A stretch of 42,296 nt of DNA, taken from the NCBI GenBank assembly GCA_005885405.1, contig VAYN01000024.1:1-42296 (forward strand), read 5' to 3'. Positions 12,362-19,351 of the stretch are shown here, one piece after another. This DNA is from Actinomycetota bacterium (GTDB lineage: Bacteria; Actinomycetota; Thermoleophilia; Solirubrobacterales; 70-9). Position numbers and translations under genes: made by a program. A model generated the notes under the pieces. That model searched no databases. It had not been told where the DNA came from and was given only the letters and a program-made list of their open reading frames with translations. The first letter of the stretch is position 1. Each line of letters opens with the position of its first letter.

Positions 12362-14621
<2,260 letters not shown>

Positions 14622-14717
14622 CGAGGGCGATGCTATCGACGCGGGCCGGCCCTTGACCCCGAGCCGCCGGTGCGTTCGCCTGTGAGCGGGTGGGGACGAC
14701 AAGTAGAGGAGAGTGAG

Positions 14718-14813
14718 ATGGACAGCTGCAAGCCGCATTTTCGGCTTCCAGCCGATCCCTTTTCCATCAGAGCCAGATGGAACACTCGCGCTTCGAAGCC
14801 CCCCTGCCGATGA
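14718..14813 (+). CDS. candidate 31-residue leader ORF
   Basis: A strong Shine-Dalgarno (agaggagag) sits about 6 bases before this ATG. The frame gives 31 residues ([16 protein letters not shown]...) and stops at 14811-14813, only 6 bases before the ATG of the next ORF. The arrangement suggests a short ORF coupled to the 164-residue gene or a leader peptide. Nothing in the peptide is recognisable, and it could be chance. Confidence 0.35.
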
Positions 14814-14819
14814 AGAGCC

Positions 14820-15314
14820 ATGGAACACGCCGCTGACCCACCGCCCTTCCCGGCCTCCGAGCTGGTGGAATCCGGTCCCCTCGCCGAGGTGGAGCTGACC
14901 TCGCGCCGGCCACCGGTGTTCGTCGACCACGCGTTCAGCTGCCTCCAGCTGCGCTTCCAGGGCCAAGAGCACGTTCCTCCGATCGGGATCGTCAGCGGGC
15001 TCGAGTGGCTGCAGCTCGGCGCTCGCTACGTCGCCGTCCAAGAGCCCCTGATGCTGAAGGATCCCCGTCGCGGCTGGGCCCCGGTGGGGGGGATTCACAC
15101 CGGCGCTCTGCTGCTCGGGCCGTCTGAGGCCGGCCAGCTCGAGTTCCCCGCTGACGTCCGGGCGGAAGACGGAGTGCTGCTCTGCGCCTATCCGACCTTT
15201 CTCTCGCTCACGGCGTGCGGAGACACGATGGCAACGGTGCAGGTGGGAGTCGAAGACCTTCTCACCGCCCCGGAGGCCTCGGCGCGCCGGCGGCAGGACG
15301 CGCTCGCGGCCTAG
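14820..15314 (+). CDS. hypothetical protein, 164 residues
   Basis: No family is recognised. The protein is soluble-looking, with no signal peptide or TM helix, rich in Pro, Glu and Leu, and predicted mainly beta in the middle ([38 protein letters not shown]). The C-terminus is helical and charged ([13 protein letters not shown]). Only one base separates its stop from the stop of the convergent 743-residue gene, so both ends are tightly packed. It is divergent from icd. The presence of a good Shine-Dalgarno at the preceding 31-codon ORF rather than at this ATG suggests coupled translation. Coding call is moderate, supported by tidy G/C-rich third positions over the length. Confidence 0.6.
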
Positions 15315-15315
15315 A

Positions 15316-17547
15316 TCAGCGTTTCGCGGTCAGCGCCTGGGGCGCGAGGATGGCGGCGAGGGCGGCGATCGCCTCGTCCTCCGCGGCCCGCTCCTCGAGC
15401 GTCTTCAGCACCAGCGAGACGGAAGGGGCGGTGAGCTTTTCTTCGAAGGCGGCCCAGCCGAACTCCGCGAGGATGGCTACTTCCATTTTGTTCGCTTTTT
15501 TCTTCCACTCGCGCTCGAATCTCTGCTCCTGCGAGGTGTAGCGGAGCTCGCTCTCGCTGGCGGTTCGCAGGATCCCCCCGCACTGAGGCCAGTCCCGCCA
15601 GGTCGAGACGATGAAGCCGGCGTCCACGTAATAGCTGGGCGGCTGGGTTTCTCCCGGGATCTGGACCTCGGCCCGGTGCGTCTGCAGAGCCGAGGCCCAG
15701 CGGACGAACGCGGTCGAGGCGGAGATGTCGCCGGCGAAGGTCCCGTCGACCTCGGTCGGCGCGGACCTAACCGGTGAGATGCGGCACAGGGGCGTTTCTT
15801 CCAGCTCGGAGATCCTGCGGGTGAAGTACTCCGAATGGGCGTCGTGCAGCTCCGGCCGGGTCTTGTTCTTCAAGCGTTCGCGCTCCTCGCACCAGGGGCA
15901 GCGGTCGTCGGGGTGCGGAAGTCGGACGCGCTCGCACGCGGTGAAGCGAGGCCCACCGCGGGATCCCGGCCAGAAGAGGTTGCGGACCGCGTTCAGCTCG
16001 TCGTCGGTGGGGGAGCAGTCGAGAACGACGAAGCCGCTCAACTCCACTTCGGAGAGACGAGCCGTGCCGAGGTGGACCTTCAGCCCTTCGAACAGCCATC
16101 CCATCGTCGCGCCGGAGGCGATCATGTCGTCGAGGAGCAGGATCCGATCGCGTTTCTTCAGGGAAGGACCGACCTCGGCGGCAGGATCGAGGCGGGGGAC
16201 GATGTGCACCGAGGTCTTCGGGTGCGGGAGAGCCGCCTCGGCCAGCGCCTTCAGCGCCGGGGCGCACTCCTGATCCGGGATCAGGACGAGGCAATCCTCC
16301 GTCTGGGCCTGCGCCAGCTTCTCCTGGCACTGGCCGCGGAATTTCGGGTTGCCGAGGAGCTTGCCGACCTCGATGTCGACCGCGCGATGGCGGCGCATCG
16401 CCCTCGTCCCTGGATGCTCGTAGCGCTCGGAGGCGTGTACGGCCGCGGCGAGGGTCCGGTCTATCGCCTGCCAGAGCTCTCTGACCTCCCGCATTCCCGA
16501 CTTGCTCACCTTGACCTGGGTCCGGCGCTTTTCCACCGGCTCCGGTATCTCGTCGTCCACGTCGATCTTCTGGAGGACCCGTTCCCCCTCGGCCGCGACC
16601 TTGCAGTACTCGCACTCCGAGGCGTGATGACGCTCGATCGGCACGTGGACGAAGGCGTCGGTCGCGGGGTCCGGCCAGGTGGTGTCGACCAGGCACAGCT
16701 TCGCCGCCCCCGCGAAGCCGAAGCGGTTGAGCGCCTTCTCGCGCTCGCCGCCGGGGCGCAGGGGGTCGCCGGCGCGCGTGTCGACGCCGATCACGATCAC
16801 CTGGTCCCGCGATTCATCCGGCTTCATCGAGGCCGGGACGCGCGAGTCGCGCGCCTCGCTTTCGTCATAGCGCGGAAGCCGGTGCACCTCGGCCTTGCCC
16901 TTCGACCTGGCCATGAGGCACGCCTCAAGGGTCGCCTCGAGGACGCCGAGGCCACGATGGGCGATCATGATCTGCGCTCCGTCGGGGATCGAGGGCAGGA
17001 TCCAGTCGCAAATCCGATGGCAGTCGCGGGGGGATTCGAGCGCGTTCCGAAGCCGGACATAGCGACGGACGTGGGCCCCGCTGCTGATTTCGTAGTGGCC
17101 GGTCGTTGGTTCCAGGATCGCCTTCCGGCCGACCAACAGCCCGTACATCTCGATTGCCCGCAGGTCCTCCAGGCTCGGCTCCTCCCGCATCGGAGGCGCC
17201 CACGAAGGGCGGATCACCGTGGGACCCCCGCCGGCCTCCGCGGCCCCGACGAGGCAGAGAACCCCCTGATCTTCCCGAACCTGGCTCCGCACCTCGTCGG
17301 TGGTCTCGATCCGCTCGGCGAAGTGCCAGTCGGCGCCCCGGAGGACGATGAGGTCGGCGGTCGCGTAAGCGAAGCTGTTCCTCTCGAAGCAGTTCGCCAG
17401 CGTCTCGGATCCCGGGAAATCTGAGCACAGATCAACGAAGACCAAGCTGCCCCCCGCGTAGTCCACCGGCACCGTCACCGAGATCGGCTTGATGGCCTGA
17501 GGATCCGCACAGAAATACCGAGCGCCCGCCTGTCCCTGCTGCCTCAT
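15316..17547 (-). CDS. duplicated phosphoribosyltransferase-fold protein with paired zinc knuckles
   Basis: 743 residues. The second half has a clear type I PRTase PRPP-binding motif at 469-482 ([14 protein letters not shown]). The first half has an orotate-PRTase-like entry segment at ~149-165 ([16 protein letters not shown]), but its counterpart of the PRPP loop ([13 protein letters not shown], 250-262) lacks the acidic pair, so it looks degenerate. Each half is followed by a His plus CxxC cluster (HH 307-308 with CEYC 312-315; HPDDRCPWC 545-553), which suggests an ancestral duplication of PRTase plus zinc knuckle. The first ~120 residues and the last ~150 are not recognised. A PRTase would use PRPP to modify or salvage a base, but no pyrimidine-synthesis genes are adjacent, so the substrate is unknown. 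No strong Shine-Dalgarno is visible. It is divergent from the AidB-like gene. Confidence 0.75.
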
Positions 17548-17644
17548 GGGCGGCTGGAGTCTAATGCACCATTCGACAGGCGACGACCTCTCACGATCCC
17601 TTGCGGTGGCGCAGAGACCGCCACGGCGCCGGGAGGAAAAGTTG

Positions 17645-19351
17645 ATGCAGTTTCAACCTCTCTGCGAGAATCGGACCGTGACGACGGTCGAGCAGCCGAC
17701 TACGGGGCGGACCCATGAGGTGGCCAACCAGCCACCGCCGTTGGTCGACTACAACGTCTTCGAGAGCGACATCGTGCTGGTCGAGGCGGTCAAGCGCGAG
17801 GGCGCGGAGTGGGACCTGCAGCGGATCGCGGCGGCGGGCGAGTACGCGGGCAGCGAGGCGGCCCAGGAGCTCGGCCGACTTGCCAACGAGAACGGGCCGA
17901 AGCTGAAGACCCACGACCGCTACGGCAACCGCGTCGACGTCCCCGAGTTCCACCCCTCCTGGCACGAGCTGCTGGCCGTCGGGGTGGGATTCGAACTTCA
18001 CTCCTCCCCCTGGAAGGACCCGCGGCCGGGCGCTCACGTCGCTCGGGGAGCCGCCTTCATGTGCATGTCGCAGGCCGAGGCCGGGATTGGCTGCCCGATC
18101 TCGATGACCTACTCGGTGATCCCGGCGCTGCGGACGCAGCCGGAGCTCGCCGCGGAGTGGGAGCCGCGCTTCCTCTCCGCGACCTACGACCCGACGAACG
18201 CGCCGGCGCCGCAGAAGCAGGGCGCCCTCGCGGGGATGGGAATGACCGAGAAGCAGGGCGGGACCGACGTTCGCGCCAACACCACCGTCGCCCGCCCAGT
18301 CAACGGCGGCGGCCCGGGTGCCGAGTACGAGCTGACCGGCCACAAGTGGTTCATGTCGGCCCCGCAGTGCGACGCCTTCCTTGTCCTCGCTCAGGCCGAT
18401 GGCGGCATCTCCTGCTTCCTCTTCCCGCGCTGGACGCCGGACGGCGAGCGCAACCGCTTCCGCCTGCAGCGCTTCAAGGACAAGCTCGGCAACCGCTCCA
18501 ACGCCTCCAGCGAGATCGAGTTCGACGCCGCCTCCGCCTGGCTCGTCGGCGAGGAGGGCGCCGGGGTGCGGACGATCATCGAGATGGTCAACCACACCCG
18601 CCTCGACTGCGTCCTCGGCGGCGCCACCGGGATGCGGGCCGGGGTCGCCCAGGCGATCCACCACGCGTCCCATCGCTCGGTCTTCGGCCGCGAGCTGGTC
18701 GAGCAACCGCTGATGCGGAACGTCCTCGCCGACCTCGCGATCGAGTCCGAGGCGGCGACGATCTCGGCGCTGCGCCTGGCCCGCGCCTACGACGAAGCGA
18801 TCGCCGGCGACGAGGAGGCGGCGCATCTGAAGCGGGTCGCCAACGCCGTCCTCAAGTACTGGATCTGCAAGCGCGCGGTCGCCCACGCCGGCGAGGCGCT
18901 CGAGTGCCTCGGCGGCAACGGCTACGTCGAGGAGTCCGGCCTGCCGCGCCTTTTCCGCGAGAGCCCGCTGAACTCGATCTGGGAGGGCTCGGGCAACGTC
19001 CAGTGCCTCGACGTCCTCCGCGCCATGGTCAAGGACCCGGCCTCTCTGGAGGCCTTCTTCGCCGAGGTCGGCGAGGGCGCAGCGGCGGAGCCGCGCCTCC
19101 AGGCTTTCACCGCCTCGCTGCGGGAGGAGCTGCCCGGTGACCTCGAGACGATCGAGTTCCGCGCCCGCCGCGTAGTCGAGCGCATGGCCCTCGCCCTCCA
19201 GGCATCGCTCCTCGTCCGCTACGGCGACGAGGCCACCGCCGACGCCTTCTGCGCCTCCCGCCTCTCCGGCGACTGGGGCCAGGCCTTCGGCACCCTCCCG
19301 GCCGGCACCGACTTCGGCCGCATCATCGAGCGGCACCGCCCCCTCAACTAA
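17645..19351 (+). CDS. aidB: AidB-like acyl-CoA dehydrogenase family protein
   Basis: About 568 residues from the ATG at 17645, which has a strong Shine-Dalgarno (ggagg, 8 bases upstream); a GTG at 17679 (reads MTTVEQPTTGRTHEVANQPPPL) is a possible alternative. The upstream frame to 17546 overlaps the divergent gene's start and is unlikely to be coding. The THEVANQPPPLVDYN opening, GMGMTEKQGGTDVRANTT (FAD/substrate region), KDKLGNRSNASSEIEF, LECLGGNGYVEESGLPRLFRE and NSIWEGSGNV are hallmarks of the AidB branch of the acyl-CoA dehydrogenase superfamily. In E. coli AidB is a flavoprotein of the adaptive response to alkylation and binds DNA; a catabolic role is also possible here. No ada/alkB neighbours are present. 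Confidence 0.88.
   Translation: MQFQPLCENRTVTTVEQPTTGRTHEVANQPPPLVDYNVFESDIVLVEAVKREGAEWDLQRIAAAGEYAGSEAAQELGRLANENGPKLKTHDRYGNRVDVPEFHPSWHELLAVGVGFELHSSPWKDPRPGAHVARGAAFMCMSQAEAGIGCPISMTYSVIPALRTQPELAAEWEPRFLSATYDPTNAPAPQKQGALAGMGMTEKQGGTDVRANTTVARPVNGGGPGAEYELTGHKWFMSAPQCDAFLVLAQADGGISCFLFPRWTPDGERNRFRLQRFKDKLGNRSNASSEIEFDAASAWLVGEEGAGVRTIIEMVNHTRLDCVLGGATGMRAGVAQAIHHASHRSVFGRELVEQPLMRNVLADLAIESEAATISALRLARAYDEAIAGDEEAAHLKRVANAVLKYWICKRAVAHAGEALECLGGNGYVEESGLPRLFRESPLNSIWEGSGNVQCLDVLRAMVKDPASLEAFFAEVGEGAAAEPRLQAFTASLREELPGDLETIEFRARRVVERMALALQASLLVRYGDEATADAFCASRLSGDWGQAFGTLPAGTDFGRIIERHRPLN

What the first reader, a model, noticed from the sequence alone, without database searches (positions are those of the whole stretch)
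15316..17547. 743-residue protein that looks like a doubled phosphoribosyltransferase, each half with a zinc knuckle
The second half carries an intact PRPP loop ([12 protein letters not shown]). The first half has an OPRT-like entry motif but a PRPP loop without acidic residues. Both halves end in a His plus CxxC cluster. An active PRTase paired with an inactive pseudo-PRTase in one chain, outside any pyrimidine or purine operon, suggests a regulatory or base-modifying role. PRTase domains of unassigned substrate are known in bacterial stress and conflict systems, but linking this gene to them is inference.
Basis: partly seen in the sequence, partly recalled or inferred. Interest (0 to 1): 0.72.

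Follow-up and report, generated by a model that had tools for sequence, protein, structure and literature searches.

The report
Lone tandem OPRT-like candidate defence protein
A bacterium has acquired a gene for a protein built from two altered copies of a pyrimidine-making enzyme; its relatives sit beside an ATPase gene, and several match a listed but unexplained candidate phage-defence system.

Summary
The gene (minus strand, 15316-17547, 743 aa) encodes two tandem phosphoribosyltransferase-like halves. Profile comparison derives both from PyrE_Therm-type orotate phosphoribosyltransferase (OPRT): half 1 at 97-99% probability, half 2 at 95-97% in the P0001/P0002 subgroup. The "zinc knuckle" is the ordinary C-terminal CPxC of that OPRT type (19 of 19 checked). 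Half 1 keeps the OPRT entry motif but not the acidic PRPP pair. Half 2 keeps an intact PRPP loop but has lost the entry motif, and the chain has no RRG tripeptide. Five diverged homologues (19-24% identity) were found: one on Cupriavidus plasmid pHG1, four in Actinomycetota. All five have a GHKL-like ATPase gene directly upstream. Two lie beside recognised defence genes (Avs1/AbiJ; type I restriction) and one near a CapP-like peptidase. P0003 and P0007 match PADLOC's undescribed candidate PDC-M65 (A = GHKL, B = this protein); four others match marginally. The window protein does not hit that model and has no GHKL neighbour. It sits in a roughly 3 kb insertion between icd and aidB, which are adjacent in most relatives checked. 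Four of six members lack the acidic pair in both halves, so catalysis is doubtful as a family trait. Function is untested.

The parts
15316..17547 (-). 743-aa tandem OPRT-like protein (P0001), related to PDC-M65B-like proteins
   Evidence: Open frame; homologous to pHG1 protein P0002, BLASTP E 4e-16 over residues 61-555
16543..17193 (-). Half 1, residues 119-335: OPRT-like domain with degenerate PRPP loop
   Evidence: hhalign vs 19 PyrE_Therm-type OPRTs: P 97-99%, 165-190 columns, with 2, 5 or 6 rows; 82% with P0001 alone
17053..17097 (-). OPRT entry motif [15 protein letters not shown], residues 151-165
   Evidence: H151, S156, G157, H159, R165 invariant in 6 of 6 family members; motif in 6 of 6; coordinates
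16762..16800 (-). Half 1 PRPP-loop position (residues 250-262), acidic pair lost
   Evidence: Alignment to the OPRT ED[VT].TT loop, present in 19 of 19 OPRTs
16603..16629 (-). HHASECEYC, residues 307-315: C-terminal Cys pair of half 1
   Evidence: C312 and C315 invariant in 6 of 6 family members; aligns to OPRT CPxC
15862..16530 (-). Half 2, residues 340-562: OPRT-like domain with intact PRPP loop, entry motif lost
   Evidence: hhalign with P0001+P0002 rows: P 95-97%; five rows 26-34%, six rows 87%, P0001 alone 8%; AF2 model too weak to decide
16105..16140 (-). PRPP loop [12 protein letters not shown], residues 470-481
   Evidence: acidic pair in 2 of 6 family members
15889..15915 (-). HPDDRCPWC, residues 545-553: C-terminal Cys pair of half 2
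   Evidence: CPWC in 2 of 6 family members; aligns to OPRT CPxC
15319..15861 (-). C-terminal region, residues 563-743, unassigned
   Evidence: No similarity to OPRT
14820..15314 (+). 164-aa ORF of unknown function in the same insertion, convergent with the gene
   Evidence: Codon score 0.57 against at most 0.47 in the other five frames; no Pfam, NCBIfam, PADLOC or plasmid hit
14655..17665 (.). Approximate insertion between icd (start 14609, minus) and aidB (about 17678-19351, plus)
   Evidence: icd-aidB gap 3116 bp here, at most 302 bp in 10 of 13 relatives measured; boundaries estimated by eye

Best explanation
The gene is a horizontally acquired, solitary and divergent relative of the B component of PADLOC's candidate defence system PDC-M65. 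SHOWN: its halves are related to PyrE_Therm-type OPRT; its homologues form a two-gene unit with a GHKL-like ATPase; it lies in an insertion absent from relatives. INFERRED: in the two-gene systems the GHKL ATPase acts as an ATP-driven switch that senses infection and sets the state of the tandem OPRT-like protein. That protein binds PRPP or a nucleotide between its half-sites: half 1 supplies the base-side entry pocket, half 2 the phosphoribose pocket. It acts as the effector or signal-reading subunit, for instance by consuming PRPP, adding phosphoribose to a target, or triggering growth arrest. In this genome it would have to work alone or with an unlinked ATPase. It is very unlikely to be the cell's OPRT, because a separate PyrE-like gene is present.
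For: Both halves match OPRT profiles above scrambled controls. The family profile A4 rang 26 genomes besides G1062 in one search; all 19 loci fetched carry OPRT ORFs, 7 were not inspected; the 2 scanned exceed the pyrE_Therm cut-off. A GHKL-like gene ends 7-10 bp before the homologue (four loci) or overlaps it by 17 bp (one locus) in 5 of 5, with start codons of four chosen by me. HATPase_c is found in 4 of the 5 partners, all below the gathering score; for pHG1 the evidence is a GHKL motif pattern, in 0 of 20000 shuffles. PADLOC: PDC-M65A hits P0003 at E 9.2e-6; PDC-M65B hits P0007 at 7.4e-5 and, marginally, P0004, P0006, P0008 and a P0002 segment at 0.03-0.07, all starting at profile position 135-139. 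Defence neighbours: avs1abc (as annotated) and AbiJ_NTD3; HsdR and HsdS; CapP-like peptidase. Insertion. Own PyrE-like gene.
Against: P0001 gives no PDC-M65B hit, whole or in pieces, and neither does whole P0002. No GHKL gene adjoins P0001; none was found in the contig's frames or, above chance, in the genome, although that profile cannot recover the pHG1-type ATPase when it is left out. Pfam recognises no defence gene among 25 other window ORFs; PADLOC was run on only one of them. Two homologue loci (L009, L015) show no defence neighbours, though L009 is a 5.1 kb contig. The GHKL pattern that fits P0003 was written with P0003 in view and misses two partners that HATPase_c finds. Only 6 sequences are known here. 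No confident structure and no experiment.
Confidence: 0.55

Rival explanations
1. Non-catalytic PRPP or nucleotide sensor: both domains have lost transferase chemistry and serve as ligand-binding regulators, as PurR of Bacillus does with a PRTase fold (recalled analogy), controlling the partner ATPase or a promoter.
For: Acidic pair absent from both halves in 4 of 6 members and from half 1 in 6 of 6; no RRG tripeptide in P0001. PurR structures appear among the Foldseek matches of the weak half-2 model.
Against: P0001 keeps a textbook DDxxxSGAT loop. No DNA-binding domain was found in it. PurR-like regulators also keep the loop (recalled), so the loop does not decide.
Confidence: 0.25
2. Decaying remnant: a two-gene defence unit was inserted, the ATPase gene was lost, and the remaining ORF has no present function.
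For: No ATPase gene beside it, unlike 5 of 5 homologues; not found in any of 60 relatives searched.
Against: A 2.2 kb frame with no stop and a codon score (0.62) inside the range of 11 window genes (0.58-0.80), though at its low end; PRPP loop and both Cys pairs intact.
Confidence: 0.15
3. A metabolic OPRT or other nucleotide-salvage enzyme of the host.
For: Both halves are related to OPRT.
Against: Far below the pyrE_Therm cut-off (14.7 against 150.25 bits). The genome has a separate PyrE-like ORF (L074). Not found in 60 relatives; no pyrimidine gene among 25 other window ORFs scanned.
Confidence: 0.03
4. Part of an AidB-linked stress response, because it lies beside aidB.
For: Adjacent and divergent.
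Against: aidB lies beside icd without this gene in relatives; the adjacency arose by insertion. No aidB-like gene was seen in the homologue loci read.
Confidence: 0.02

Closest known systems
PADLOC phage defence candidate PDC-M65 (models PDC-M65A, 398 positions; PDC-M65B, 763 positions)
   Same: Two genes of the same sizes. P0003 hits A; P0007 and, marginally, P0004, P0006, P0008 and a P0002 segment hit B. The models carry no description.
   Different: The window protein does not reach the B model and has no A gene beside it. No paper naming PDC-M65 was found.
PyrE_Therm-type orotate phosphoribosyltransferase (TIGR01367)
   Same: Each half aligns along the OPRT domain; entry motif in half 1, PRPP loop in half 2, C-terminal Cys pair in both.
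   Different: Tandem in one chain with extra N- and C-terminal regions; each half lacks part of the active site; far below the family cut-off.
DprA-PRTase (P2/P4 hotspots) and type III retron PRTase effectors (PMC9122126, PMC12548924; passages seen)
   Same: PRTase-fold protein used in phage defence.
   Different: There the partner is DprA, or RT plus a DNA-binding protein; here it is a GHKL-like ATPase and the PRTase is doubled. No sequence comparison with those PRTases was made.
GHKL-ATPase Shedu VcSduA (PMC12137116; passages seen)
   Same: GHKL ATPase proposed to control a linked effector.
   Different: The effector there is a PD-(D/E)xK nuclease fused in one chain.

Membership tests
PADLOC PDC-M65 | B protein matches the PDC-M65B model | tested here: not met
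   P0001: 0 families at E<=10 whole; none of 4 pieces hit PDC-M65B, half 2 hit PDC-S06 at E 0.007. Homologue P0007 hits at 7.4e-5; whole P0002 does not.
PADLOC PDC-M65 | A gene (GHKL type) adjacent | tested here: not met
   Absent beside the gene; no hit in 626 frames of the contig; best in genome E 0.034 over 36 positions. GHKL-like gene present in 5 of 5 homologue loci; only P0003 hits the PDC-M65A model of 5 partners scanned.
PADLOC PDC-M65 | Phage protection | not testable with these tools
   PADLOC itself lists it as a candidate.
PyrE_Therm OPRT (TIGR01367) | Score above the curated cut-off of 150.25 bits | tested here: not met
   14.7 bits.
PyrE_Therm OPRT (TIGR01367) | Entry motif GHFxLSSGxHS-like | tested here: met
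   Half 1 only, 6 of 6 family members.
PyrE_Therm OPRT (TIGR01367) | PRPP loop with acidic pair | tested here: inconclusive
   Half 2 of P0001 and P0002 yes; half 2 of the other 4 no; half 1 no in 6 of 6.
PyrE_Therm OPRT (TIGR01367) | RRG tripeptide of the catalytic loop (role recalled) | tested here: not met
   18 of 19 OPRTs have it; P0001 does not.
PyrE_Therm OPRT (TIGR01367) | C-terminal Cys pair, C[PA]xC in 19 of 19 OPRTs | tested here: met
   P0001 has CPWC (half 2) and the looser CEYC (half 1).
GHKL ATPase (partner in homologues) | HATPase_c model or N/G1/G2 boxes | tested here: inconclusive
   HATPase_c E 2.5e-5 to 0.0037 in 4 of 4 Actinomycetota partners, all below the gathering score; P0003 by recalled motif pattern, 0 of 20000 shuffles, but not by profile.
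Type III retron / DprA-PRTase | Reverse transcriptase or dprA adjacent | tested here: not met
   Neither among 25 other window ORFs scanned with Pfam.

The most novel reading that the evidence does not exclude
A new immune chemistry: a GHKL ATPase gates a pseudo-dimeric OPRT in which two degraded copies, fused in tandem, share one working site (entry pocket from half 1, PRPP pocket from half 2). The OPRT dimer would have been turned into a phosphoribosylating or PRPP-draining effector, and the window gene would be a stand-alone version that no longer needs the ATPase.
Probability: 0.2. Interest if true: 0.78.

Novelty: new variant of a known kind. Interest (0 to 1): 0.5.

Why it matters
It gives an undescribed candidate defence system (PDC-M65) a likely chemical and evolutionary identity: a GHKL-like ATPase plus a tandem relic of a pyrimidine-synthesis enzyme. 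That makes specific tests possible (PRPP binding, Cys-pair and loop mutants, phage assays). The solitary version in this genome asks whether the OPRT-like part can act without its ATPase.

Tried and rejected
AF2 of the full chain from one sequence gave pLDDT 40.1, so no model of the chain could be used. AF2 of half 2 with 7 OPRT rows gave pLDDT 41.8, pTM 0.32. Foldseek then gave 517 matches with E<=10, none with E<=0.001. The 50 listed are, from their titles, PRTase-fold proteins (the best, HP1257, is titled hypothetical), with E 0.0096 or worse and query TM 0.23-0.37. This is weak, and biased by the OPRT rows in the alignment.

The G421 hit (E 4.6e-4) is a PEP carboxylase by eye and was dropped as chance. 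G1475 is a partial match (first 112 positions) without an intact gene recognised in the fetched stretch; it is left out of the six-member counts. In one search, 27 of 276 genomes matched: 1 is the true homologue G1062; 19 of the other 26 had loci and all 19 are OPRT ORFs; 7 were not inspected.

Viral-contig scans with P0002, P0003 and alignments A1, A2, A3, A6 found no family member; a seventh with OPRT alignment A8 gave 14 OPRT-like loci, 7 of which were used as AF2 rows. Of two genome-contig scans, the first found nothing and the second two loci. The phage collection gave no match to P0001 or P0002. Plasmids gave only pHG1 for P0001, P0002, P0003 and none for P0006, P0007 or P0005; P0004 and P0008 were not tried.

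Half 1 against half 2 directly: only 2-18% probability, so each is closer to OPRT than to the other. Half 2 of the other subgroup matches OPRT poorly (P 0.03-1.7%). With rows pooled, half 2 ranges from 26% to 87%. No terminal repeats that would explain the insertion were evident. No promoter-like site was found, with 0.1 expected by chance, so that is uninformative.

Full report
WHAT IS THERE. Window 15316-17547 on the minus strand is an uninterrupted 743-codon gene. Pfam finds nothing at E<=1 and PADLOC nothing at E<=10. NCBIfam gives only weak matches: pyrE_Therm at 149-183 (E 0.018), and APRT models at the second PRPP loop (E 0.18-0.2).

HOMOLOGUES. tblastn found one plasmid homologue: P0002, 756 aa, on Cupriavidus necator pHG1, in two records of the same plasmid (pairwise E 4e-16 over residues 61-555). 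Both named taxa are Actinomycetota. Pairwise identities are 19-54%; P0006 and P0007 are the closest pair, and P0001 shares 19-24% with the others. Frequencies: own genome only among 61 relatives; own plus G503 among 232 of the order; own only among 399 of the class; own plus one chance hit among 396 of the phylum, with P0001 alone as query; 2 of 296 and 4 of 246 around the Poriferisocius genome, one of the 4 a fragment. The sets overlap.

WHAT THE HALVES ARE. Searching 276 genomes with the family profile rang 26 besides G1062. The 19 loci fetched all carry an OPRT ORF, and the 2 of these scanned exceed the TIGR01367 cut-off. Against an alignment of these 19, half 1 (119-335) matches over 165-190 columns at 97-99% probability. 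Half 2 (340-562), from P0001 and P0002, matches over 173-183 columns at 95-97%. Residues 1-118 and 563-743 do not match. Sixty scrambled or reversed OPRT alignments gave at most score 26.5 (half 1) and 18.4 (half 2), against 99 and 58. All 19 OPRTs end in a C[PA]xC, so the 'zinc knuckles' are best read as the tails of two OPRT copies. Results against: P0001 alone gives 82% for half 1 and 8% for half 2; half 2 with five rows pooled gives 26-34% and scores 31 against a scrambled maximum of 24; half 2 of the other subgroup is near noise.

WHAT IS CONSERVED. Over six members, the entry-motif residues H151, S156, G157, H159, R165, and also W182, C312 and C315, are among the 26 invariant positions. 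The half-2 acidic pair and CPWC occur in 2 of 6 (P0001, P0002). The half-1 acidic pair occurs in none. The conserved core of the family is thus half 1's entry motif and its Cys pair, not the PRPP loop that first drew attention.

PARTNER AND CONTEXT. In 5 of 5 homologue loci a GHKL-like ATPase gene lies immediately upstream on the same strand: L002 10635-11774 (P0003), L005 6901-8100, L009 1-1338 (open at the contig end), L015 10679-11839, L080 11050-12390. Gaps are 7, 7, 10 and 9 bp, and one overlap of 17 bp, with most start codons chosen by me. HATPase_c matches four of them below the gathering score. P0003 fits a GHKL motif pattern (0 of 20000 shuffles), which I wrote with P0003 in view and which misses L005 and L015; P0003 is not linked to the others by profile. 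Neighbours: avs1a/b/c as annotated and an AbiJ_NTD3 protein on pHG1; HTH, HsdR and HsdS in G1505, no HsdM seen; a thymidylate-synthase-like gene, a CapP/IrrE-like peptidase and a nucleoside deoxyribosyltransferase-like gene in the Solirubrobacterales MAG. L009 (5.1 kb) shows only a DEAD helicase beyond the pair. G1062 shows ordinary genes, named here by eye.

LINK TO PADLOC. P0003 matches PDC-M65A (E 9.2e-6); the four other partners do not. P0007 matches PDC-M65B (7.4e-5, residues 169-349 to model 139-313). P0004, P0006 and P0008 (0.066, 0.037, 0.03) and a P0002 segment (0.041) match B marginally at the same place; whole P0002 does not. P0001 does not; its half 2 gives PDC-S06 at 0.007. PDC stands for phage defence candidate (passages of PMC11514479 and PMC12548924). 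No paper in the held library names PDC-M65. Searches for PRTase or OPRT with GHKL, HATPase, defence island, PADLOC and related terms showed, in the listings and the passages read, no description of this pair. Six papers were read, only as passages, and for PMC13092281 also the figure legends. Those legends mention a validated system with a PRTase and a predicted one with a HATPase; the figures are not held, so I cannot exclude that one is related. The library holds no bioRxiv preprints.

THE WINDOW COPY. It has no ATPase neighbour. aidB is divergent upstream, a 164-aa ORF is convergent downstream, then icd. Of 22 relatives' aidB loci examined, icd lay within the locus in 13; in the other 9 it was not within reach and the gap is unknown. 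The gap is 117-302 bp in 10 of 13 and 737, 761 and 1062 bp in three; in the window it is 3116 bp. The gene is therefore part of an insertion of roughly 3 kb. Pfam places ordinary genes around it: Lon, Hsp20, lactate/malate-dehydrogenase family, isocitrate dehydrogenase, succinate dehydrogenase/fumarate reductase, an ACT-domain amino-acid kinase, DnaX. The genome carries a separate PyrE-like ORF with an intact loop (L074; 52 bits to TIGR01367, Pribosyltran just below its gathering score).

MECHANISM. Established knowledge (recalled): OPRT is a dimer whose active sites use loops from both subunits; the ED..TTG loop binds phosphoribose; GHKL ATPases close on ATP. A tandem chain with the entry motif in half 1 and, in P0001 and P0002, the PRPP loop in half 2 could form one composite site. 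Inferred: the ATPase sets its state on infection. Because four members lack the acidic pair altogether, a ligand-binding, non-catalytic role is the main rival. The window copy could be a stand-alone form or a remnant.

VERDICT. A real, well-supported tandem OPRT-like protein, related to an undescribed candidate defence system, solitary and divergent. Function is inferred only.

Noticed in passing
window 14820-15314 (+): 164-aa ORF of unknown family in the same insertion, convergent with the gene; coding-like codon use; no hits in Pfam, NCBIfam, PADLOC or plasmids.
   Followed up: partly
icd-aidB spacer, window 14610-17677; L038, L039, L049: The spacer varies among relatives (737, 761, 1062 bp in three of 13); in L039 it seems, by eye, to hold a TetR-type regulator. 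It may be an insertion-prone site.
   Followed up: no
L005 63-2847: Thymidylate-synthase-like, CapP/IrrE-like peptidase and nucleoside deoxyribosyltransferase-like genes in a row upstream of the GHKL/OPRT pair: a possible further defence cluster.
   Followed up: partly
L002 8473-9927 (-), pHG1: AbiJ_NTD3 protein between avs1 and the pair, annotated hypothetical; PADLOC does not list it.
   Followed up: no
L081 8403-8753 (-): Fragment matching only the N-terminal part of the family profile (E 2.5e-17), without intact gene or ATPase recognised: a possible decayed copy.
   Followed up: partly
window 17546-19351 (+): The listed aidB ORF start overlaps the gene's start; the true start is probably the GTG near 17678, judging by eye from relatives.
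   Followed up: partly
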